From Pelagimonas phthalicica (GTDB lineage Bacteria; Pseudomonadota; Alphaproteobacteria; Rhodobacterales; Rhodobacteraceae), in assembly GCF_004364805.1 (NCBI RefSeq), contig NZ_SOAP01000004.1, forward strand, positions 62,001-126,000: a stretch of 64,000 nt of DNA, read 5' to 3'. The notes under the pieces are model-generated. The model made no database searches. It was not told the origin of the DNA and was given only the letters and a program-made list of their open reading frames with translations. The translations under genes were made by a program, and so were the position numbers. Below are positions 3,562-38,352 of this stretch, in pieces. Every line of letters starts with the position of its first letter. The stretch's first letter is position 1.

Positions 3562-4245
3562 TCAGGCGTCGCTGTCCAGCACCCCAGAGCGGAACAAAAG
3601 CCCCGCCGCCACAGCCCCCAGGATCGGTGCCAGAATGAACAGCCAAAGCTGCCCCAAAGCCTGCACCCCCGCGAACAAAGCCGGCCCAAAAGAGCGCGCC
3701 GGATTGACCGAAACCCCGGTGATATTGATGCCGACCAGATGGATGCCCACCAGGGTCAAACCAATGGCCAGACCCGCAAATTGGGCCGGCACCCCGGCCC
3801 CGGTAGCCCCCAAAATAACCACCATAAACAGGAAGGTAGCCACCAGTTCGAACAGGAAGGCCGCGATCATGCCATACTCCCCCAGATAACCCGCGCCCCA
3901 GCCATTTTGACCCAGCCCGTTCTCAGCGACGCTGTAATCGGCCTTGCCCATGGCGATCATCATCAGGATGAACGCAGCAGCGACAGCTCCGGCCACCTGC
4001 GCGATGATATAGGTCACCGCCTCGGGCATGCTAATGCGCCCCGCCGCCACCGCGCCCAGCGACACAGCCGGGTTGATATGACAGCCCGAAACCGGCCCGA
4101 TCCCATAGGCCATCCCGATCAAAGCCAGCCCAAAAGCCAGACTGATCCCGGTCAGCCCAATGTCCGGCCCGGCAATCACAGCCGACCCGCACCCAATCAG
4201 AACTAGCGTAAATGTTCCAATAAACTCAGCGACTTGTTTCTTCAT
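3562..4245 (-). CDS. aqpZ: aquaporin Z
   Basis: 227 residues from the ATG at 4245, which is preceded by GAGGTGAGGG; an upstream in-frame ATG would add 12 non-homologous residues. Six membrane helices and both NPA half-helix motifs are present (HINPAVS and SVNPARS; the Arg after the second NPA is the selectivity-filter Arg). It is a membrane water channel. Compared with E. coli AqpZ the segment before the first NPA reads IGPVSGCH instead of VGHISGGH, a modest change. The gene lies downstream of rplW on the same strand but a strong terminator separates them, so it likely has its own promoter. Confidence 0.92.
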   Translation of the reverse strand: MKKQVAEFIGTFTLVLIGCGSAVIAGPDIGLTGISLAFGLALIGMAYGIGPVSGCHINPAVSLGAVAAGRISMPEAVTYIIAQVAGAVAAAFILMMIAMGKADYSVAENGLGQNGWGAGYLGEYGMIAAFLFELVATFLFMVVILGATGAGVPAQFAGLAIGLTLVGIHLVGINITGVSVNPARSFGPALFAGVQALGQLWLFILAPILGAVAAGLLFRSGVLDSDA

Positions 4246-4360
4246 CGCACCCTCACCTCGTAAGCTACATGCGCCAAACATCTGACAGTTTGTCGCAGCG
4301 GGTAAGGGGAATTCGGGCGCGGCAAACTCAGGTCACAACACCCGCACCCGCGCACAAAGA

Positions 4361-4392
4361 AAAACCCCCTGGCAAAAACCAGGGGGTTCTTC
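4361..4392 (-). terminator. terminator of the S10-type operon (after rplW)
   Basis: Perfect 10-bp stem AACCCCCTGG / CCAGGGGGTT with a 6-base loop, followed on the minus strand by TTTTTCTTTG. It lies 46 bases beyond the rplW stop, showing that the operon ends here and does not continue into rplB. Confidence 0.85.
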
Positions 4393-4400
4393 AAATTCAT

Positions 4401-4428
4401 GCCGTAGGGTGGGGTTAAACCCCACCTT
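4401..4428. repeat. GGGTGGGGT palindromic repeat, copy 1
   Basis: GCCGTAGGGTGGGGTTAAAC continuing into CCCACC; the arms GGTGGGGTT and AACCCCACC can pair. The same element occurs at 9703, 11025, 37057 and 49977, always between genes. Confidence 0.75.
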
Positions 4429-4437
4429 ACCCATCCT

Positions 4438-4734
4438 TTACAGACCAGTGGTCACGTCGATGGTGTTGCCCTCTTCGAGGGTCACATAGGCTTTCTTGAC
4501 GTCCTTGCGACGGCCGGTCACGCCTTTGAAACGCTTGACCTTACCTTTGGTGATGGTGGTGTTAACCGCCTTCACCTTCACACCAAACAGAGCCTCAACG
4601 GCCTCTTTGATCTGTGGCTTGTTGCTGTCGATGGCAACTTCGAAAACCACTGCGCCGTTTTCGGACGCCATGGTGGATTTCTCGGTTACGACCGGCTTGC
4701 GGACGATGTCGTAATGTTCTGCTTTCGCGCTCAT
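4438..4734 (-). CDS. rplW: 50S ribosomal protein L23
   Basis: 98 residues, normal length. The N-terminal [11 protein letters not shown] and the central [20 protein letters not shown] stretch are characteristic of L23, which binds 23S rRNA near the peptide exit and docks SRP and trigger factor. The start overlaps the rplD stop by 4 bases, indicating translational coupling. It is the last gene of this operon: a strong terminator follows and rplB is absent, which is unusual. Confidence 0.97.
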
Positions 4735-5348
4735 TTCAGGCGAGCCTCCAGTGCTTCGACACCTGCTTTGGTGATCACCAGAGTGTCACGCTTGAGGATG
4801 TCATAAACGTTGGCACCGATGGTTGGCAGGATGTCCAGACCTTCGATGTTACGAGCTGCTTTGGCGAAGTCTTCGTTGACCGAAGCCCCGTCGATGATCA
4901 GCGCGCGCTTCCAACCCAGAGCCTTGACCTGATTGGCCAGGGTCTTGGTCTTGCCGTCGGTGGCCGCATCCTCAAGAACAACCAGCGAGCCAGTTGCAGC
5001 CTTGGCGGACAGAGCCATTTTCAGACCCAGAGCGCGGACTTTTTTCTGCAAGGAGTGACCGTGCGAACGCGGGGTCGGACCCTTGTAGATACCACCCTTG
5101 CGGAAGATAGGCGCCTTGCGGGACCCGTGACGTGCGCCACCGGTGCCTTTTTGGCGATAGATCTTCTTGGTCGAGTAGCTGACCTCGGAACGGGTCTTGA
5201 CCTTGTGGGTACCGGCTTGGGCGTTGTTACGCTGCCAGCGGACCACACGGTGCAGGATGTCGGCACGTGGCTCGAGGCCAAACAGTGCTTCGTCCAGCTC
5301 GACAGAACCGGCGGCTGCGCCGTCAAGTTTGATTACGTCGAGTTTCAT
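4731..5348 (-). CDS. rplD: 50S ribosomal protein L4
   Basis: 205 residues. The conserved extended loop is clear ([20 protein letters not shown]), as is the C-terminal [18 protein letters not shown]4 binds 23S rRNA and lines the exit tunnel; in E. coli it also autoregulates the S10 operon. The gene overlaps rplC by 4 bases and rplW by 4 bases, so rplC-rplD-rplW form a coupled unit. Confidence 0.97.
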
Positions 5349-6064
5349 GCGTCACCTCCTTCGGCAGCAGCTTCTTCTGCCGGAGCGTCTGTGGAGCGGA
5401 TAGCCGCAGGTGTCGGCACGTCAGAAGGCACAGGCTTTTTGACCGCGTCCTTCAGAGTGACCCAGCCACCCTTGGAACCCGGAACAGCGCCTTTGATCAT
5501 GATGATGCCGCGATCCGCGTCAGTCTTCACAACCTGCAGGTTCTGAGTGGTAACACGGGCAGCACCCATGTGACCGGCCATTTTCTTGCCTTTGAAAACC
5601 TTGCCCGGGTTCTGACACTGACCGGTCGAACCGTGGGAGCGGTGGCTGATGGACACACCGTGTGTCGCACGCAGACCGCCAAAGTTCCAACGCTTCATAC
5701 CACCGGCGAAACCTTTACCGATCGAGATGCCGGATACGTCAACGTACTGGCCCTCGTTGTAATGTTCGGCGGTGATTTCCGCGCCCACTTCGATCAGCAT
5801 CTCAGGAGCAACACGGAATTCCGCAACCTTACGCTTGGGTTCCACATTTGCTTTGGCAAAGTGGCCACGCATGGCTTTGGAAACGTTTTTGGCTTTGGCT
5901 GTGCCAGCACCCAGCTGAACAGCGGTGTAACCGTGCTCTTCTTCGGTGCGTTGTGCCACGACCTGCAGGTTTTCCAGCTGCAGAACGGTCACCGGGATCT
6001 GCTTGCCGTCCTCTTGGAACAGACGAGTCATCCCGACTTTCTTTGCGATAATACCAGAGCGCAT
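5345..6064 (-). CDS. rplC: 50S ribosomal protein L3
   Basis: 239 residues. The N-terminus [16 protein letters not shown] and the central [17 protein letters not shown] and [15 protein letters not shown] segments are diagnostic. L3 folds early onto 23S rRNA near the peptidyl transferase centre. Compared with the about 209-residue enterobacterial form, it has an Ala/Glu-rich C-terminal extension ([15 protein letters not shown]), common in Rhodobacterales. The start lies 9 bases after the rpsJ stop. Confidence 0.97.
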
Positions 6065-6073
6065 GATACCCCC

Positions 6074-6379
6074 TTAGACTTTGATCTCGACGTCAACGCC
6101 AGCGGCGAGGTCGAGCTTCATCAGGGCATCAACAGTCTGAGGAGTCGGGTCGACGATGTCGAGCATACGCTTATGCGTACGGATCTCGAACTGGTCGCGC
6201 GACTTCTTGTTCACGTGTGGGCCACGCAGAACTGTGAATTTTTCGATTTTGTTAGGCAGCGGGATGGGACCGCGGACCTGAGCACCGGTGCGCTTGGCAG
6301 TGTTAACGATTTCCTGTGTGGAAGCATCGAGAACGCGATAGTCAAACGCCTTCAGCCGGATACGGATGTTCTGGTTCAT
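6074..6379 (-). CDS. rpsJ: 30S ribosomal protein S10
   Basis: 101 residues from the ATG at 6379 ([18 protein letters not shown]). An upstream in-frame start would add 18 residues not found in S10. The core [20 protein letters not shown] and [12 protein letters not shown] is diagnostic. S10 (NusE) acts in the 30S head and in NusB-dependent antitermination. It heads the operon rpsJ-rplC-rplD-rplW, and a promoter-like site lies about 120 bases upstream (6496-6524). Confidence 0.96.
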
Positions 6380-6449
6380 TGAACATACCTTTATTGGCAT
6401 TGGAGTTGAGAGGAGGATGGGCGACCACCGCACACCCTCATCGAACCCA

Positions 6450-6471
6450 AACGGCGGGAATCACCCCGCCG
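6450..6471 (-). promoter_or_regulatory. leader hairpin of the S10 operon
   Basis: CGGCGGG, a 5-base loop AATCA, then CCCCGCCG lies in the predicted untranslated leader between the S10 promoter and rpsJ. It could be part of the L4-type autoregulatory leader, but the fold does not clearly match the E. coli one. Confidence 0.35.
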
Positions 6472-6495
6472 CAAGTCTCATCGAGACATTACGCG

Positions 6496-6524
6496 CGTAT
6501 ACAAGCGGGATGAAGATCAGGCAA
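6496..6524 (-). promoter_or_regulatory. predicted promoter of the rpsJ operon
   Basis: Minus strand: TTGCCT, 17-base spacer, TATACG. The -10 hexamer is identical to that of the str operon promoter at 14350. The expected leader is about 110 bases. Confidence 0.5.
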
Positions 6525-6672
6525 GCCCCTCTCTGCAGAGTGCACCAAGTTTACCAAGACTCGTTGGCAAGTCTGATGGCTTATCATCCGCAAGCCCGAC
6601 ACTGATGAAACACGAGCCCATTTCAGACTAAGTTCACGTGCACCGTTAACTTTTACTTGCTTATAAAGAGAA

Positions 6673-7977
6673 ATGACTACTTCATATTGGAAATTGTATC
6701 CAAACTCAAAAGTTTCCATGTCCGACAGCACCAAAGATTTCCGCATTTTCATTAGTCACAAACATCAGGATACGCACCTGGCAAAGAAGCTTCATGAAAT
6801 CCTTCATGACAAGTGGTTGGGCGGAAACGGAAAGGTCTTTCTATCTAGTCTACCAGGGAGCGGCAAACAGGGAAAGAACCTGAACACGGAACTTACAGAA
6901 GAGCTACGGCGCACAGATTTATTCATCCTTTTGTTCACAGATGCAGATGAGGACTGGTCAAACTGCATGTGGGAGCTTGGTGTGGCAACTGGGTCTCAAA
7001 CCAAAGCAACCAGGGTCGTGACTCTTTACTGTGGAAACAAGCAACCGCTTGTCAGGATTTCTGATCTTACCGTGAGTGTTCGAGACGACAAAGAAGTTGC
7101 TGACTTTGCCGCGAATTTCCATGGCAAGGATGGATGGCTTATCAAGGACGAAGGTACTCGAGAAAGTGAAAGCGCTTTGCTGTCGTATTTGGGCTTGCAG
7201 TCGGAAGATGAAGTCAACAATCGCGCCATGTTTTTGCACGAAGAGCTTTCCAAATTCATAAATGATTCTTCACCAGAATGGATCGAAAGACTTGAATACT
7301 TGAAGTTTTCTCTGGAACGCTCACATGTCGAAAGCGTTATCGAACTTCGTGAAAAGGCGCAAAAACTCTCATTTGTTAACCAAGATCACATCGATTTCAA
7401 GAAACTGGAAGATGAAGACAAACAAAAACATCAGGCCCTGCGCCAAGAGTATGATAGCCTACGCACCAAAGCGACCATGCTCTTGCAGTCGGAATTGGTT
7501 TTGTCTCCAGATGGCCCGCTCACACAAGGTGCTCTAAACCGATTTGGTTACACCGTCGCGCCTAAAAAAGCGACCCTTAAGGATCTATTTCGAAACTGGG
7601 AAGACGATTACAGATCAAACCATAACGGCCACCTAGATGAGGATGTCATTCAGTGGCAAGCTGAATTGCTGAGTGATCTTTCCCGCGCGACCGAAGGGAG
7701 AAGTTCACGACCGTCTCGTTTTGCTATGCCAGCCACCTCTTCGAACAACAGCGAAGAGGTCTTACCGGTCGTCGTGCGCACGAGGAGCAAAGTGGATGGC
7801 TCAGTAGTCTATTTCGTATACTTCTTCCGTGCCCCTGAAGATTACTCGGCCAACGCTGTTTATAATGATTTTCTAGAAGAGACTCTAGCAGATCTAACTG
7901 ATGACCTGACAAAATGTCGAGAAGAGCTCAACAATGCAAATCTCGAAATTGCTCGTTTGACAAACGAAACTCAATAA
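6673..7977 (+). CDS. TIR-domain protein with coiled-coil and unknown C-terminal region
   Basis: 434 residues. Residues about 22-160 form a TIR-like domain: strand A FRIFISHKHQD, a Ser/Gly-rich BB-loop region (SSLPGSGKQGKNL), strand DLFILLFTDAD, and the helix motif WSNCMWELG in which Glu101 sits at the position of the NADase catalytic Glu. A charged helical stretch (about 190-310) and a small mixed domain (VVVRTRSKVDGSVVYFVYFF) follow, ending in a predicted coiled coil. The gene is clearly more A/T-rich than its neighbours and lies alone between two ribosomal operons, so transfer is likely. Many TIR proteins are anti-phage NAD-cleaving effectors; that role is inference here. The start may instead be the ATG at 6718. 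Confidence 0.72.
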   Translation: MTTSYWKLYPNSKVSMSDSTKDFRIFISHKHQDTHLAKKLHEILHDKWLGGNGKVFLSSLPGSGKQGKNLNTELTEELRRTDLFILLFTDADEDWSNCMWELGVATGSQTKATRVVTLYCGNKQPLVRISDLTVSVRDDKEVADFAANFHGKDGWLIKDEGTRESESALLSYLGLQSEDEVNNRAMFLHEELSKFINDSSPEWIERLEYLKFSLERSHVESVIELREKAQKLSFVNQDHIDFKKLEDEDKQKHQALRQEYDSLRTKATMLLQSELVLSPDGPLTQGALNRFGYTVAPKKATLKDLFRNWEDDYRSNHNGHLDEDVIQWQAELLSDLSRATEGRSSRPSRFAMPATSSNNSEEVLPVVVRTRSKVDGSVVYFVYFFRAPEDYSANAVYNDFLEETLADLTDDLTKCREELNNANLEIARLTNETQ

Positions 7978-8246
7978 AACCGTGCTTCTCCAAATGCTCC
8001 GACAGCCATCGACAAGAGCTCTGTCTGAGCTTGGTCAGACACTTGAACACATTCTTCGAAGACCCTCTGCATCTGAAACCCCGAAATTTGATTAAGAGGC
8101 AAACGTGTTACCATGAATACCGCCCTGTCCAAAAGGTAGAGATCGTCGCTATTTCGACCCCGTCGGAGCAATTCTGCAGCAACTGCGTCACTTGATGCTG
8201 TTTGGTCACCCCATTCACTACAATTAGTGCCCATCTGCCCTATCAC
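7971..8246 (-). CDS. possible small hypothetical protein convergent with the TIR gene
   Basis: A 91-codon frame from GTG at 8246, with an ATG 4 codons further in. Its predicted product is helical and not obviously low-complexity (AVAAELLRRGRNSDDLYLLD, FQMQRVFEECVQVSDQAQ). It overlaps the last 7 bases of the TIR gene tail to tail. I do not recognise it and there is no strong ribosome-binding site, so it may be spurious. Confidence 0.33.
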   Translation of the reverse strand: MIGQMGTNCSEWGDQTASSDAVAAELLRRGRNSDDLYLLDRAVFMVTRLPLNQISGFQMQRVFEECVQVSDQAQTELLSMAVGAFGEARFY

Positions 8247-8733
8247 CCCATCTTTTAGTAGAAGCTACGAAACCTAGCAGGTTTCATCAAGTTTTTTTTC
8301 CCCAACAATTTCTAAGGCCTCCCGCAAATAGGGAGCGCGCCTTCAGCCCCATAGCGGTGGTTTGTTCACTGGGGTGTGAGGATTTCTGCCGGATTGCGGG
8401 AAATTCTGTAACAAACCTCTTGTTCACGGATGCACACTGATTGTTCAGCGGGAATTTGGGTCACGGTGTTTCACTGGGATAGTGAGGAATTGGGCGGGGG
8501 TGTGAGGGTGGGGGGCTTGTTTTATTGGTCCGCACCGAGGCTGTGCAGGGGCGCGCAGTGACCTGTCTTGGCGCGCGCAATTCAAGGGCAAATTCGCGTG
8601 AGCGGGCGCGATTTTTTCGTGTGTTCAAATCCGAAATCGGGGCCCCTATCTCGTTTGGTGTCGGACGCAACAGTCCAAACAAACAAACGCCCAACCGGGC
8701 CTAACACACTGATACATATAGAAAGACAGACAC
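7978..8733. other. intergenic region between the TIR gene and the first microprotein gene
   Basis: The first part carries only the doubtful 91-codon minus frame. From about 8340 the sequence is a diverged homologue of the DNA upstream of the second microprotein cluster (about 35705-35851). From 8498 the two regions become essentially identical. Several TGTTCA repeats lie at 8361-8447. The leader of the first microprotein gene includes a short hairpin GCCC-AACC-GGGC near 8690. Confidence 0.5.
8421..8447 (+). promoter_or_regulatory. conserved TGTTCA-repeat block upstream of microprotein cluster 1
   Basis: A 27-base block with TGTTCA at both ends, 21 bases apart, and GCACAC between them. It matches the block at 35774-35800 with few changes although the surrounding DNA has diverged. 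This suggests selection on a regulator-binding site; the regulator is unknown. Confidence 0.4.
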
Positions 8734-8943
8734 ATGAAAACCCTGATCGCTTCCGCCCTCGTCGCCACTGCCGCCCTGACCGGCGCTGCCAATGCGTCGC
8801 TGTCGTCTGACGTGAAGACTTACGCCCCTGGCGCAGACATCTCCAACCTGACCGCCGCTGAAACCGCCTCGCTGCACCTGATCGTCAATGGTGGCGGTTC
8901 TGAAAGCGAAAAGCGCAACGCTGTGCGTAAAATCGTAAACTAA
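8734..8943 (+). CDS. secreted microprotein, paralogue 1 of cluster 1
   Basis: 69 residues: signal peptide MKTLIASALVATAALTGAAN ending at Ala21 (ANA), then a mature part of about 48 residues (SLSSDVKTYAPGADISNLTA, a central ETASLHLIVNGGG, basic tail KRNAVRKIVN). There is no Cys and no membrane segment in the mature part. Export to the periplasm or outside is inferred from the signal. Two near-identical paralogues follow, and the whole triplet is repeated at 36088. I do not recognise the family. The first gene has only a weak AGAAAGA ribosome-binding site, unlike copies 2 and 3. Confidence 0.82.
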   Translation: MKTLIASALVATAALTGAANASLSSDVKTYAPGADISNLTAAETASLHLIVNGGGSESEKRNAVRKIVN

Positions 8944-9029
8944 GGGACTTTTGCGGCCGCATTGGCCGCAACCTTTCCCCTCCCCCTCCCAAGACTCCCA
9001 AGAACTCCCTCCCCGAAAGGATATTTGTC

Positions 9030-9239
9030 ATGAAAACCCTGATCGCTTCCGCTCTTGTTGCAACTGCCGCTCTGACCGGTGCCGCCAATGCGTCGCTGTC
9101 ATCTGACGTGAACACCTATGCGCCCGGCGCAGACATCTCCAACCTGACCGCCGCTGAAACCGCCTCGCTGCACCTGATCGTCAATGGTGGCGGTTCTGAA
9201 AGCGAAAAGCGCAATGCGGTTCGCAAGATCGTAAACTAA
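9030..9239 (+). CDS. secreted microprotein, paralogue 2 of cluster 1
   Basis: 69 residues, differing from paralogue 1 only by Asn for Lys at residue 28 (DVNTYAPG), although synonymous changes are frequent. This contrast points to purifying selection on the peptide. The signal peptide is unchanged. The ATG follows GAAAGGA at 8 bases spacing and a CT-rich leader (CCCTCCC repeats) that is also found before paralogue 3. A GCGGCC/GGCCGC hairpin lies between genes 1 and 2. Confidence 0.82.
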   Translation: MKTLIASALVATAALTGAANASLSSDVNTYAPGADISNLTAAETASLHLIVNGGGSESEKRNAVRKIVN

Positions 9240-9409
9240 GACGTGTTTGGGGACGCTTAAGCAAAGCATCGGTTCTCCGCGTTCCTGCCCTCGGGCGGGA
9301 GGCAGCGGAAACCGATCCAAGATCCCCAAATCACGGCTAAGGAGCGCTCCGGCGCATCCCCTCTCCCTCCCAAGACTCCTAAAACTCCCTCCCCGAAAGG
9401 ACCTTTGTC

Positions 9410-9619
9410 ATGAAAACCCTGATCGCTTCCGCCCTTGTTGCAACCGCCGCTCTGACCGGTGCTGCCAATGCCTCCCTGTCTTCGGACGTGCAGACCTACG
9501 CTCCTGGTGCCGACATCTCCAGCCTGAGCGCCGCTGAAACCGCCTCGCTGCACCTGATCGTCAATGGTGGCGGCACTGAAAGCGAAAAGCGCAACGCAGT
9601 GCGCAAGATCGTAAACTAA
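9410..9619 (+). CDS. secreted microprotein, paralogue 3 of cluster 1
   Basis: 69 residues, same architecture; it differs from paralogue 1 at four conservative sites (DVQTYAPG, ISSLSAAE, GGTESE). The start is preceded by GAAAGGA. A hairpin terminator follows 40 bases after the stop, so the triplet seems to end here and is convergent with tuf. The central ETASLHLIVNGGG and the C-terminal SEKRNAVRKIVN are invariant in all six copies, marking the likely functional region. Confidence 0.82.
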   Translation: MKTLIASALVATAALTGAANASLSSDVQTYAPGADISSLSAAETASLHLIVNGGGTESEKRNAVRKIVN

Positions 9620-9659
9620 GACCTGTTCGGAGCCGCTCTGCCGGCCCCAAAACAAGATG

Positions 9660-9689
9660 AAAGCGCTGTCCGGATCGGGCAGCGCTTTT
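9660..9689 (+). terminator. terminator of microprotein cluster 1
   Basis: AAAGCGCTG and CAGCGCTTTT arms with an 11-base loop, ending in TTTT, on the plus strand after the third microprotein gene. Confidence 0.7.
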
Positions 9690-9702
9690 GCGTTGCTGGA
9701 AT

Positions 9703-9730
9703 GCCGTAGGGTGGGGTTTTACCCCACCTT
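9703..9730. repeat. GGGTGGGGT palindromic repeat, copy 2
   Basis: GCCGTAGGGTGGGGTTTTAC continuing CCCACC, between the microprotein terminator and the tuf terminator. The same core is present at 4401. Confidence 0.75.
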
Positions 9731-9756
9731 TGCCCTGCAACTGACCGCGAACAAAG

Positions 9757-9788
9757 AAAAAGGGCGCTCCAAACGGAGCGCCCTTCTT
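9757..9788 (-). terminator. terminator of tuf copy 1 / str operon
   Basis: Perfect 11-bp stem AAGGGCGCTCC / GGAGCGCCCTT, 4-base loop, followed on the minus strand by TTTCTTTG. Confidence 0.85.
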
Positions 9789-9822
9789 AAATCATCACCT
9801 CTCGGCGGCAAAGCCGCCGGAA

Positions 9823-10998
<1,176 letters not shown>

Positions 10999-11024
10999 GA
11001 TATGGCTCCTTCTTGGTGTCGGAT

Positions 11025-11049
11025 GGTGGGGTGAAACCCCACCCTACGG
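11025..11049. repeat. GGGTGGGGT palindromic repeat, copy 3 (inverted)
   Basis: GGTGGGGTGAAACCCCACCC followed by TACGG, between fusA and tuf; reverse orientation relative to copies 1 and 2. Confidence 0.75.
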
Positions 11050-11088
11050 TGGTGGGCAGGGCGGGGAGGTCCCCCGCCACCCGATTTC

Positions 11089-13206
11089 TTATGCGTATTG
11101 CGCCTGGATCTCGTCAGAGATGTTCTGCGGAACCGGATCGTAATGGTCGAACTGCATGGTAAACTGCGCGCGGCCCGAAGACATGGAACGCAGGGTGTTG
11201 ATGTAGCCGAACATGTTGGCCAGCGGAACAAATGCGTTGATCGCAACCGCGTTGCCGCGTGGTTCCTGACCGTTCACCTGACCGCGACGCGATGTCAGAT
11301 CGCCGATGATACCGCCGGTATATTCTTCCGGAGTAACAACTTCGACTTTCATCATTGGTTCCAGCAGTTTCGCACCCGCTTTGCGCATACCTTCACGCAT
11401 ACACATACGTGCTGCGATTTCGAATGCCAGAACGGAGGAGTCAACGTCGTGGAACTTACCGTCGATCAGAGCAACCTTGAAGTCGATCACGGGGAAGCCA
11501 GCCAGCGGGCCGGAGTCCATAACCGATTTCACACCCTTTTCAACACCTGGGATGTATTCCTTTGGAACCGCACCACCAACGATGCGAGATTCAAACGAAT
11601 AGCCTTCGCCGGGCTCGGTCGGAGTGATGATCATTTTCACTTCGCCGAACTGACCCGAACCACCCGACTGTTTCTTGTGGGTGTAGGTGTGTTCGACTTC
11701 GTGACCAATGGTCTCACGGTAAGCAACCTGAGGCGCACCGATGTTCGCTTCAACCTTGAACTCGCGCTTGAGGCGGTCAACCAGGATGTCCAGGTGAAGT
11801 TCGCCCATGCCTTTCATGATGGTCTGACCGGATTCCAGGTCAGTCTCAACACGGAAGGAGGGGTCTTCGGCGGCCAGACGGGCCAGACCCTGGGACATCT
11901 TCTCTTGGTCGCCCTTGGTCTTAGGCTCAACCGCGATCTCGATCACCGGATCAGGGAAGGTCATTGTTTCGAGAACAACAGGGTCGTTCTTGGCACAAAG
12001 GGTATCCCCGGTTGTAGTGTTCTTCAGGCCACCAAGCGCGATGATGTCGCCGGCAAATGCCTCTTCGATCTCTTCGCGGTTGTTGGAGTGCATCATCATC
12101 ATACGACCGACGCGCTCGTTATTGCCCTTGGTCGAGTTCAGCATCGAGTCACCCTTGTTCAGAGAGCCAGAGTAGATGCGAACGAAGGTCAAGGAACCAA
12201 CAAACGGGTCGTTCATGATTTTGAACGCGAGCCCGGAGAACGCCATGTCATCATCCGCACGGCGGGCAATGTTACGCTCTTCGGTTTCGTCACCCGGTGC
12301 AAAGCCCATGTAATCAACAACGTCCAGCGGGCTGGGCAGATAGTCGATCACAGCGTTAAGCAGCGGCTGAACACCTTTGTTTTTGAACGCAGAACCACCC
12401 AGAACCGGAACGAAGTCCAGCGCCAGTGTGCCTTTGCGCAGCAGTTCACGCAGCTTTTCAACCGATGGCTCTTCGCCTTCCAGATAGGCTTCCATGGCGT
12501 CATCGTCCTGCTCAACGGCAGTTTCGATCATCTTGGCGCGCCATTCGTCGGCCATGTCCTTCAGCTCGGCACGGATCTCACGCTTTTCCCAGGACGCGCC
12601 CAGGTCTTCGCCAGCGTAAACCCATTCCTGCATGGTCACCAGATCAACCAAGCCTTCCAGCTCGTTCTCGGCACCGATCGGAATACCAACCGGAACAGCA
12701 GTCGCGCCGGTGCGATCTTCGATCATTTCAACACAGTTGAAGAAGTCAGCGCCGATCTTGTCCATCTTGTTGACGAAAACAATGCGCGGAACCTTGTAGC
12801 GGTCAGCCTGACGCCACACGGTTTCGGTCTGAGGCTCAACACCGGCGTTGGCGTCAAGAACACAGACAGCACCGTCGAGAACCGCCAGCGAACGCTCAAC
12901 TTCAATGGTGAAGTCAACGTGGCCAGGGGTGTCGATGATGTTCAGACGGTGCTTTTCAGTGTCCGCAGTTTTGCCATCTTCGGTGCGTTCCCAGAATGTG
13001 GTGGTCGCCGCCGAGGTGATGGTGATGCCGCGTTCCTGTTCCTGCTCCATCCAGTCCATGGTGGCCGCACCATCGTGCACCTCACCAATGTTGTGGGATT
13101 TACCAGTGTAATACAGGATGCGTTCGGAACAGGTGGTTTTACCTGCATCGATATGCGCCATGATACCGAAGTTACGGTACCGATCTAATGGATATTCGCG
13201 TGCCAT
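11089..13206 (-). CDS. fusA: elongation factor G
   Basis: 705 residues. The N-terminal GTPase shows [26 protein letters not shown] and NKMDK; the RGITI effector motif and the C-terminal domain IV segment ([16 protein letters not shown]) are complete. EF-G drives translocation. It is the third gene of the str operon, with 21 bases to rpsG. No second fusA-like gene is seen in the window. Confidence 0.97.
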
Positions 13207-35537: not shown

Positions 35538-35613
35538 TGGCAGGGGCAGCAGGGTTCGAACCCGCGACCTACGGTTTTGGAGACCGTCGCTCTACCAGCT
35601 GAGCTATACCCCT
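35538..35613 (-). tRNA. trpT: tRNA-Trp (CCA anticodon)
   Basis: 76 nt with encoded CCA end. Acceptor AGGGGTA/TGCCCCT, D-arm GCTCAGCTGGTAGAGC, anticodon loop CTCCAAA and T-arm GGGTTCGAACCC are all intact. Location next to secE-nusG is common in bacteria. Confidence 0.96.
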
Positions 35614-35800: not shown

Positions 35801-36087
35801 TGGGATTGTTTTGTCACGTTGGGTGACGATTGGTGTGAGGGGATTTGGGGTGGGTGTGAGGGTGGGGGGCTTGTTTTATTGGTCCGCACCGAGGCTGTGC
35901 AGGGGGGCGCAGTGACCTGTCTTGGCGCGCGCAATTCAAGGGCAAATTCGCGTGAGCGGGCGCGATTTTTTCGTGTGTTCAAATCCGAAATCGGGGCCCC
36001 TATCTCGTTTGGTGTCGGACGCAACAGTCCAAACAAACAAACGCCCAACCGGGCCTAACACACTGATACATATAGAAAGACAGACAC

Positions 36088-36297
36088 ATGAAAACCCTGA
36101 TCGCTTCCGCCCTCGTCGCCACTGCCGCCCTGACCGGCGCTGCCAATGCGTCGCTGTCGTCTGACGTGAAGACTTACGCCCCTGGCGCAGACATCTCCAA
36201 CCTGACCGCCGCTGAAACCGCCTCGCTGCACCTGATCGTCAATGGTGGCGGTTCTGAAAGCGAAAAGCGCAACGCTGTGCGTAAAATCGTAAACTAA
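36088..36297 (+). CDS. secreted microprotein, paralogue 1 of cluster 2
   Basis: 69 residues, identical in sequence to the product at 8734, including the signal peptide ending ANA at Ala21 and the tail KRNAVRKIVN. It is the first gene after the diverged leader, so this copy may be regulated differently from its twin while making the same peptide. Confidence 0.82.
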   Translation: MKTLIASALVATAALTGAANASLSSDVKTYAPGADISNLTAAETASLHLIVNGGGSESEKRNAVRKIVN

Positions 36298-36383
36298 GGG
36301 ACTTTTGCGGCCGCATTGGCCGCAACCTTTCCCCTCCCCCTCCCAAGACTCCCAAGAACTCCCTCCCCGAAAGGATATTTGTC

Positions 36384-36593
36384 ATGAAAACCCTGATCGC
36401 TTCCGCTCTTGTTGCAACTGCCGCTCTGACCGGTGCCGCCAATGCGTCGCTGTCATCTGACGTGAACACCTATGCGCCCGGCGCAGACATCTCCAACCTG
36501 ACCGCCGCTGAAACCGCCTCGCTGCACCTGATCGTCAATGGTGGCGGTTCTGAAAGCGAAAAGCGCAATGCGGTTCGCAAGATCGTAAACTAA
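36384..36593 (+). CDS. secreted microprotein, paralogue 2 of cluster 2
   Basis: 69 residues, identical to the product at 9030 (DVNTYAPG variant). GAAAGGA and a CT-rich leader precede the ATG. Confidence 0.82.
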   Translation: MKTLIASALVATAALTGAANASLSSDVNTYAPGADISNLTAAETASLHLIVNGGGSESEKRNAVRKIVN

Positions 36594-36763
36594 GACGTGT
36601 TTGGGGACGCTTAAGCAAAGCATCGGTTCTCCGCGTTCCTGCCCTCGGGCGGGAGGCAGCGGAAACCGATCCAAGATCCCCAAATCACGGCTAAGGAGCG
36701 CTCCGGCGCATCCCCTCTCCCTCCCAAGACTCCTAAAACTCCCTCCCCGAAAGGACCTTTGTC

Positions 36764-36973
36764 ATGAAAACCCTGATCGCTTCCGCCCTTGTTGCAACCG
36801 CCGCTCTGACCGGTGCTGCCAATGCCTCCCTGTCTTCGGACGTGCAGACCTACGCTCCTGGTGCCGACATCTCCAGCCTGAGCGCCGCTGAAACCGCCTC
36901 GCTGCACCTGATCGTCAATGGTGGCGGCACTGAAAGCGAAAAGCGCAACGCAGTGCGCAAGATCGTAAACTAA
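36764..36973 (+). CDS. secreted microprotein, paralogue 3 of cluster 2
   Basis: 69 residues, identical to the product at 9410 (DVQTYAPG, ISSLSAAE, GGTESE variant). Last gene of the triplet, followed by a hairpin terminator and converging on tuf copy 2. Confidence 0.82.
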   Translation: MKTLIASALVATAALTGAANASLSSDVQTYAPGADISSLSAAETASLHLIVNGGGTESEKRNAVRKIVN

Positions 36974-37013
36974 GACCTGTTCGGAGCCGCTCTGCCGGCC
37001 CCAAAACAAGATG

Positions 37014-37043
37014 AAAGCGCTGTCCGGATCGGGCAGCGCTTTT
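37014..37043 (+). terminator. terminator of microprotein cluster 2
   Basis: Identical to the AAAGCGCTG/CAGCGCTTTT hairpin at 9660. Confidence 0.7.
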
Positions 37044-37056
37044 GCGTTGCTGGAAT

Positions 37057-37084
37057 GCCGTAGGGTGGGGTTTTACCCCACCTT
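37057..37084. repeat. GGGTGGGGT palindromic repeat, copy 4
   Basis: Part of the large duplication; identical to the element at 9703. Confidence 0.75.
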
Positions 37085-37110
37085 TGCCCTGCAACTGACC
37101 GCGAACAAAG

Positions 37111-37142
37111 AAAAAGGGCGCTCCAAACGGAGCGCCCTTCTT
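37111..37142 (-). terminator. terminator of tuf copy 2
   Basis: Identical to the AAGGGCGCTCC/GGAGCGCCCTT hairpin with T tract at 9757. Confidence 0.85.
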
Positions 37143-37176
37143 AAATCATCACCTCTCGGCGGCAAAGCCGCCGGAA

Positions 37177-38352
<1,176 letters not shown>

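What the first reader, a model, noticed from the sequence alone, without database searches (positions are those of the whole stretch)
8734..9619. Undescribed secreted microprotein family in tandem triplets
Three 69-residue paralogues with the same signal peptide and about 48-residue mature parts occur in tandem and again at 36088-36973, six copies in total. Protein differences are few and conservative, while synonymous differences between paralogues are many, which indicates selection on the peptide. The conserved core ETASLHLIVNGGG and tail KRNAVRKIVN match no family I know. Location next to tuf and high copy number suggest high-level expression of an exported peptide.
Basis: partly seen in the sequence, partly recalled or inferred. 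Interest (0 to 1): 0.75.

Follow-up and report, generated by a model that had tools for sequence, protein, structure and literature searches.

The report
Undescribed family of small exported proteins
Three near-identical genes next to the elongation-factor gene tuf encode tiny exported three-helix proteins of an undescribed family seen here almost only in one bacterial family (Rhodobacteraceae), with its own promoter and stress-linked multi-domain cousins, and no known function.

Summary
In detail: three intact 69-residue ORFs with one signal peptide lie at 8734-9619 and again at 36088-36973. The second triplet is not independent: it sits in an exact 2446-bp repeat that contains all of tuf, so tuf gene conversion probably carried it along. 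The family is real and matched no curated family in Pfam, NCBIfam, PHROGs or PDB. A mature-part profile hits 55 of 290 genomes of its taxonomic family (own included) but only 2 of 289 class-wide, one of them its own. AlphaFold2 gives a confident three-helix mini-domain (pLDDT 93); 0 of 122 extracted members have a cysteine in the mature part. Single-domain arrays share a private promoter and a 5' mRNA hairpin; multi-domain genes carry an EcfG-type general-stress promoter (22 of 28 upstreams, against 0 of 46 single-domain ones). Most likely role: an abundant, non-enzymatic envelope or periplasmic binding/protective protein. Export, abundance and role are inferred, not shown.

The parts
8734..8943 (+). 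single-domain family gene 1 (signal peptide 8734-8796, mature part 8797-8940)
   Evidence: ORF; family profile
9030..9239 (+). single-domain family gene 2
   Evidence: ORF; profile
9410..9619 (+). single-domain family gene 3
   Evidence: ORF; profile
8585..8652 (+). conserved promoter footprint with GTGA-type direct repeats and a -10-like CCTATCT
   Evidence: R2 model hit G000:C4:70585-70652, E=3.6e-12 (a training locus); matrix
8663..8676 (+). putative 5' UTR hairpin; only 4 bp in this copy, longer in relatives
8499..10998 (.). repeat unit A: promoter, triplet and whole tuf; exact from 8553, one mismatch left of it
35853..38352 (.). repeat unit B, copy of unit A beside tRNA-Trp
35939..36006 (+). 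second copy of the promoter footprint
   Evidence: R2 hit G000:C4:97939-98006
36088..36297 (+). identical copy of gene 1
36384..36593 (+). identical copy of gene 2
36764..36973 (+). identical copy of gene 3
9823..10998 (-). tuf (EF-Tu), convergent with the triplet, inside the repeat
   Evidence: ORF; repeat
37177..38352 (-). second, identical tuf
35538..35613 (-). tRNA-Trp, syntenic landmark shared with relatives

Best explanation
The triplet encodes a Sec-exported, cysteine-free three-helix mini-protein of about 48 residues from a family seen here almost only in Rhodobacteraceae. With no conserved catalytic residues it most likely acts by mass, in the periplasm or envelope, binding or shielding a common envelope component or client protein. 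Dosage is raised by tandem copies, by a dedicated promoter with GTGA direct repeats, by a 5'-terminal mRNA hairpin that probably stabilises the transcript, and here by tuf gene conversion that copied the array to a second locus. Relatives string 2-4 such domains into one protein, mostly under an EcfG-type general-stress promoter: a stress-induced form of the same binding unit. Shown: family, predicted fold, purifying selection, synteny, two promoter classes, the exact repeat. Inferred: export, abundance, location, conversion direction, and the protective or binding role.
For: Homologues in many genera. dN well below dS for most tandem paralogues and against the congener (dN 0.09-0.10, dS 0.57-0.62). 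Signal peptide, no mature cysteine in 0 of 122, net charge 0 (5 acidic, 5 basic). Three-helix model pLDDT 93. Only P11 invariant and L18 nearly so, i.e. no catalytic signature. Tandem arrays of 2-4 in 20 of 39 loci. Private promoter: all 20 R2 hits at E<=0.01 over 20 genomes precede family genes. 5' hairpin in 18 of 29. EcfG-type promoters on 22 of 28 multi-domain genes, and NepR in 16 of 16 genomes that have one, 19 of 31 others.
Against: No expression, localisation or phenotype data. No conserved partner gene that would name the client: contexts away from tuf vary. Codon adaptation only moderately raised, one of three copies at 0.056. The NepR contrast is modest once all 47 genomes are counted. 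235 of 290 genomes of the family show no hit, so it is dispensable or fast-evolving. CenR, an envelope regulator that would have tied the arrays to the envelope, failed its matrix test. Some divergent tandem pairs have dN near or above dS (L042 with its fourth gene 0.61/0.47, L095 0.90/1.04, L097 0.94/1.07).
Confidence: 0.42

Rival explanations
1. A secreted antagonistic peptide (bacteriocin-like) released to inhibit relatives.
For: Small, exported, tandem near-identical copies, helical.
Against: Neutral charge and no cysteine; no immunity or dedicated export gene recognised by eye in neighbouring ORFs (neighbours were not all searched in family libraries); conserved sequence rather than diversification; multi-domain stress-promoter relatives.
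Confidence: 0.12
2. A precursor of a peptide signal, processed further after export.
For: Small exported product with a conserved C-terminal segment.
Against: Conservation spans the whole three-helix domain, a stable fold is predicted, and multi-domain forms exist.
Confidence: 0.08
3. A neutral passenger kept and spread by tuf gene conversion, with no selected role.
For: It lies inside the tuf repeat, and tuf genes convert readily (recalled).
Against: Purifying selection; arrays are also amplified without tuf (L128/L129); conserved private promoter.
Confidence: 0.04
4. The locus acts mainly as RNA (hairpin-capped transcript), the ORFs being incidental.
For: Conserved 5' hairpin and promoter.
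Against: Open frames with dN below dS across paralogues and genera; the same domain occurs in longer proteins; no Rfam family over its gathering score in 8400-10000.
Confidence: 0.02

Closest known systems
DUF4148 (PF13663)
   Same: Small exported proteins; 8 of 35 full-length members match weakly, best E 0.0034
   Different: With the signal peptide removed none of 10 mature parts matched it at E<=1, so the likeness is in the signal peptide
Tuberculin-active protein / MTB12 family (PF12198; NF053528)
   Same: Small secreted helical proteins; PF12198 E 0.048 for gene 1, one of 35 members E 0.0051 to NF053528
   Different: PF12198 scores 14.1 bits against a cut-off of 25; single weak hits only
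EcfG general-stress regulon of Alphaproteobacteria
   Same: 22 of 28 multi-domain relatives carry GGAAC-N16/17-[CTG]GTT; published consensus GGAAC-N16-CGTT (PMC7083833, passages)
   Different: The window's single-domain arrays lack it (0 of 46 single-domain upstreams), and the own genome has no NepR
CenR (CenKR envelope two-component system) regulon of Rhodobacter sphaeroides
   Same: Direct repeats of TGA upstream of a promoter; targets are mainly exported or envelope proteins (PMC9275681, passages and section 11 part 1)
   Different: A matrix from its 31 published sites does not pick out the array promoters

Membership tests
DUF4148 (PF13663) | match to the profile by the mature domain | tested here: not met
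   0 of 10 mature parts at E<=1; the weak matches of full-length members (8 of 35, best 0.0034) depend on the signal peptide
Tuberculin-active protein (PF12198) | profile score above the curated cut-off | tested here: not met
   14.1 bits against 25; 12.8 for the mature part
EcfG (general stress) regulon, multi-domain relatives | EcfG-type promoter upstream | tested here: met
   22 of 28 relaxed, 5 of 28 strict GGAAC-N16-CGTT; dinucleotide shuffles mean 0.16 (max 2) relaxed and 0.02 strict; random pieces 8 and 0 of 1140. Pattern chosen after seeing the sequences
EcfG (general stress) regulon, multi-domain relatives | anti-sigma NepR present in the same genome | tested here: met
   16 of 16 with such a gene, 19 of 31 others, Fisher p=0.0038; genomes chosen by me
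EcfG (general stress) regulon, window arrays | EcfG-type promoter upstream | tested here: not met
   0 of 46 single-domain upstreams; no NepR in the own genome
CenR regulon | match to the published CenR sites | tested here: not met
   46 single-domain upstreams: mean best 5.5 against 5.3 for dinucleotide shuffles, 5 of 46 over the 95% level
CenR regulon | loss of transcription when CenR activity falls | not testable with these tools
   needs mutants
Bacteriocin | linked immunity or export gene | tested here: inconclusive
   none recognised by eye; neighbours were not systematically searched in family libraries
Bacteriocin | growth inhibition of relatives | not testable with these tools
   bench assay

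The most novel reading that the evidence does not exclude
A new Rhodobacteraceae-specific exported mini-domain that bacteria use in two forms: free monomers from dosage-amplified arrays with a private promoter and a hairpin-capped mRNA, and stress-induced strings of 2-4 domains, both often placed at the tuf/tRNA-Trp/secE junction. Together they would be a previously unseen modular envelope-protection system.
Probability: 0.33. Interest if true: 0.7.

Novelty: new variant of a known kind. Interest (0 to 1): 0.52.

Why it matters
An exported protein family beside core translation genes is absent from the family libraries searched, although its domain, its arrays and its dedicated regulation recur across many genera of a large bacterial family. 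The two promoter classes turn 'hypothetical protein' into a testable statement about when each form is made, and the tuf-linked repeat suggests how tuf gene conversion can spread a neighbouring array.

Tried and rejected
Six independent copies: rejected, exact tuf-containing repeat. DUF4148 or tuberculin membership: rejected. Weak library matches of multi-domain relatives (L018 to PF09290 E 1.1e-4 and PF21058 E 3.8e-4; L043 to PF21737 E 0.0012) are all under their curated cut-offs and share no family; one member reaches E 9.7e-4 to NCBIfam NF040942 (cut-off not shown there). CenR control of the arrays: looked good by eye, failed the matrix built from published sites; the multi-domain upstreams did score above shuffles there (mean 8.1 against 5.1; 10 of 28 over the 95% level), not pursued. 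RpoH promoter: the -10 (CTA..T) fits, but the -35 TTG is TTC in 19 of 28 (passages of PMC3441632). Sigma-70 scan: no site. Exact promoter pattern and short model R1 in the own genome: only the two array copies. Plasmid relatives: none at E<=0.001. Rfam over 8400-10000: nothing over its gathering score. PDB by sequence: mature profile best E 0.13; the profile with signal peptides gave 8qjg_A at E 0.012. First AlphaFold2 model with signal peptide was poor (pLDDT 70) and gave no fold match; the better model gave none either. Literature: none of six peptide strings occurs in the held library; searches (listings only; no paper) showed no such family.

Limits. The promoter matrix was trained on the sequences it scores, and its null is mononucleotide shuffles, as is that. 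R2 was trained on 24 of the 26 promoters cut, so most of its hits are training loci; those outside training are G397:C1, G258:C51 and G088:C11 (E<=0.002), G047:C43 (0.012) and G397:C14 (0.29). Of 34 R2 hits, 14 have E above 0.01; G047:C43 and G397:C14 are family promoters, G258:C3 was read and no family gene was seen, the other 11 were not resolved. The regions were picked from hit lists, not drawn at random. A few sources are the same genome under two names (e.g. L036 and L110; L045 and L130 look identical), so the 122 members hold some duplicates; upstreams were deduplicated. Four hits without a start were dropped. NepR absence in G181 and G098 is weak (86% and 84% complete).

Full report
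Observation. Three ORFs of 69 codons lie at 8734-8943, 9030-9239 and 9410-9619 on +, tail to tail with tuf (9823-10998, -), and again at 36088-36973 beside the second tuf. The two triplets lie in one exact repeat of 2446 bp, 8553-10998 = 35907-38352, that contains all of tuf and ends at its start codon; with one mismatch it extends left to about 8499. The own genome has no other member at E<=0.001. The paralogues differ by 1-4 residues with NG86 dN 0.007-0.034 and dS 0.35-0.41. Codons 41-54 are DNA-identical in all three, so the core's identity within the triplet is weak evidence for protein selection. Against the congener's partial copy (51 codons) dN is 0.09-0.10 and dS 0.57-0.62.

How the second triplet arose. 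In the same-genus genome G218, one tuf has a single divergent member behind it (L109), followed by DNA matching window 6472-4438 at 90%, while its tRNA-Trp locus carries the start of a gene and promoter like the window's before the contig ends. In the window, the DNA that matches G218 is separated from tuf by a TIR-domain gene (6673-7974) and the repeat unit; a tblastn of the divergent member over window 4001-12000 found only the triplet and chance-level matches. The simplest reading, an inference, is that the array first sat between tRNA-Trp and tuf and that tuf gene conversion copied it to the other locus.

Family. One sequence finds 24 of 295 genomes of the taxonomic family (own included), a profile of the mature part 55 of 290 and 43 of 244 in the order sample, all 43 labelled same family. 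A class-wide sample gives 2 of 289: the own genome and a 23-position match at E=1.7e-4 in another family. Named holders are Pelagimonas, Mameliella, Antarctobacter, Roseivivax, Sagittula, Marivita, Citreimonas and Salipiger (14 loci). Of 122 members extracted from fetched loci (a few duplicates), 93 have one domain, 15 two, 13 three and 1 four; none has a cysteine after residue 25. No curated cut-off was reached where cut-offs were shown, NCBIfam, PHROGs and PADLOC name no shared family, and the PDB has no sequence relative.

Structure. With 28 single domains aligned, AlphaFold2 gives three helices (2-9, 20-31, 36-47), pLDDT 93, pTM 0.73; Foldseek finds nothing with E<=0.001 in the PDB, best E 4.0. 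Only P11 is invariant and L18 nearly so. No conserved cysteine and no catalytic pattern points to a binding or structural role (inference).

Place. In the 52 regions fetched (chosen from hits), single-domain genes occur in 39, of which 24 lie near tRNA-Trp or tuf (5 kb) or secE (3 kb); multi-domain genes occur in 22, of which 14 do. Of single-domain genes within 5 kb of tRNA-Trp, 37 of 44 run opposite to it, and 12 of 12 multi-domain genes do. A recurrent order is secE, multi-domain gene, tRNA-Trp, single-domain array, tuf. Copies of one genome usually group together in a protein tree (few columns, the Marivita-like copies unresolved), and tandem paralogue dS starts at 0.017: repeated local amplification or conversion. 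In G323 a 1.4-kb stretch with the whole triplet is duplicated at 96.7% on a second contig without tuf in the stretch fetched.

Selection. In one search most tandem pairs have dN well below dS (e.g. L080 0.006/0.11, L100 0/0.26, L128 0.08/0.47). Against this, a few very divergent pairs do not: L042 with its fourth gene (0.61/0.47), L095 (0.90/1.04), L097 (0.94/1.07), where saturation makes the estimate poor.

Promoter of the single-domain arrays. Of 46 deduplicated upstreams, 28 score above 17 with a matrix trained on them (shuffles at most 7.3): GTGATTT, 19 nt, CC[TC]A[TG][CT]T. In 16 of 29 a further TGA lies 21 or 22 nt before the first, the pattern of an OmpR-type activator (inference); the CenR matrix did not support CenR. 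Over 20 genomes all 20 R2 hits at E<=0.01 lie upstream of family genes, by coordinates or by reading; three were outside training, and one of these (G088:C11) leads to a family gene that the protein profile had not listed. So the promoter looks private to this family. Just downstream, 18 of 29 leaders have a stem of weight 5 or more against 9.7% of shuffles; the stems differ in sequence but share place and A/C-rich loops, and mean MFE is -9.5 against -5.4 kcal/mol. The window's own stem is only 4 bp.

Promoter of the multi-domain genes. GGAAC-N16/17-[CTG]GTT occurs in 22 of 28 upstreams, 0 of 46 single-domain ones, 0.16 on average in dinucleotide shuffles and 8 of 1140 random pieces; the strict GGAAC-N16-CGTT occurs in 5 of 28. 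This is the EcfG consensus (PMC7083833, passages). I noticed the motif by eye first, so the pattern is post hoc. NepR, the anti-sigma of that system, was sought in 47 chosen genomes: present in 16 of 16 with such a gene and in 19 of 31 others (Fisher p=0.0038). The first 20 genomes alone had looked sharper; the second 27 weakened the contrast. The own genome has neither NepR nor, at the thresholds used, a multi-domain member.

Expression. Codon adaptation to tuf, fusA and ribosomal/nusG genes is 0.61-0.64, near rpoB/rpoC (0.67) and above the window background mean of 0.49; that background of 28 ORFs still held rpoB, rpoC and the second tuf, so the contrast is if anything understated. This favours fairly high expression, unproven.

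Verdict. This is a genuine undescribed exported domain family with its own regulatory anatomy. Its biochemical role remains an inference; I put the envelope-protection reading at 0.42.

Noticed in passing
window 6673-7974 (+): TIR-domain protein of 434 aa (Pfam TIR_2 E 9e-8, PADLOC ThsB models E 4.5e-9) with poorly adapted codons (0.31), between the DNA shared with the congener and the repeat unit; it looks like a recent insertion, possibly anti-phage defence.
   Followed up: partly
L109:766-1023 (-), genome G218: Same-genus genome has a divergent 86-aa family member with a C-terminal tail beside tuf; no trace of it in the window.
   Followed up: partly
L096, L097: Divergent members lie near an ORF that by eye looks like pyruvate kinase; L095 and L103 may be alike on the other strand. 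Not checked with a profile.
   Followed up: no
L036, L037, L039, L040, L048, L110: Contigs end inside or close to the arrays, so draft assemblies probably undercount copies.
   Followed up: no
upstreams of multi-domain genes, e.g. L090, L117, L136, L139: CenR-like sites are enriched here (mean best 8.1 against 5.1; 10 of 28 over the 95% shuffle level) though not at the single-domain arrays.
   Followed up: no
window 9757-9788: Strong hairpin with T-run behind tuf (14 pairs), a likely shared terminator of tuf and the array.
   Followed up: no
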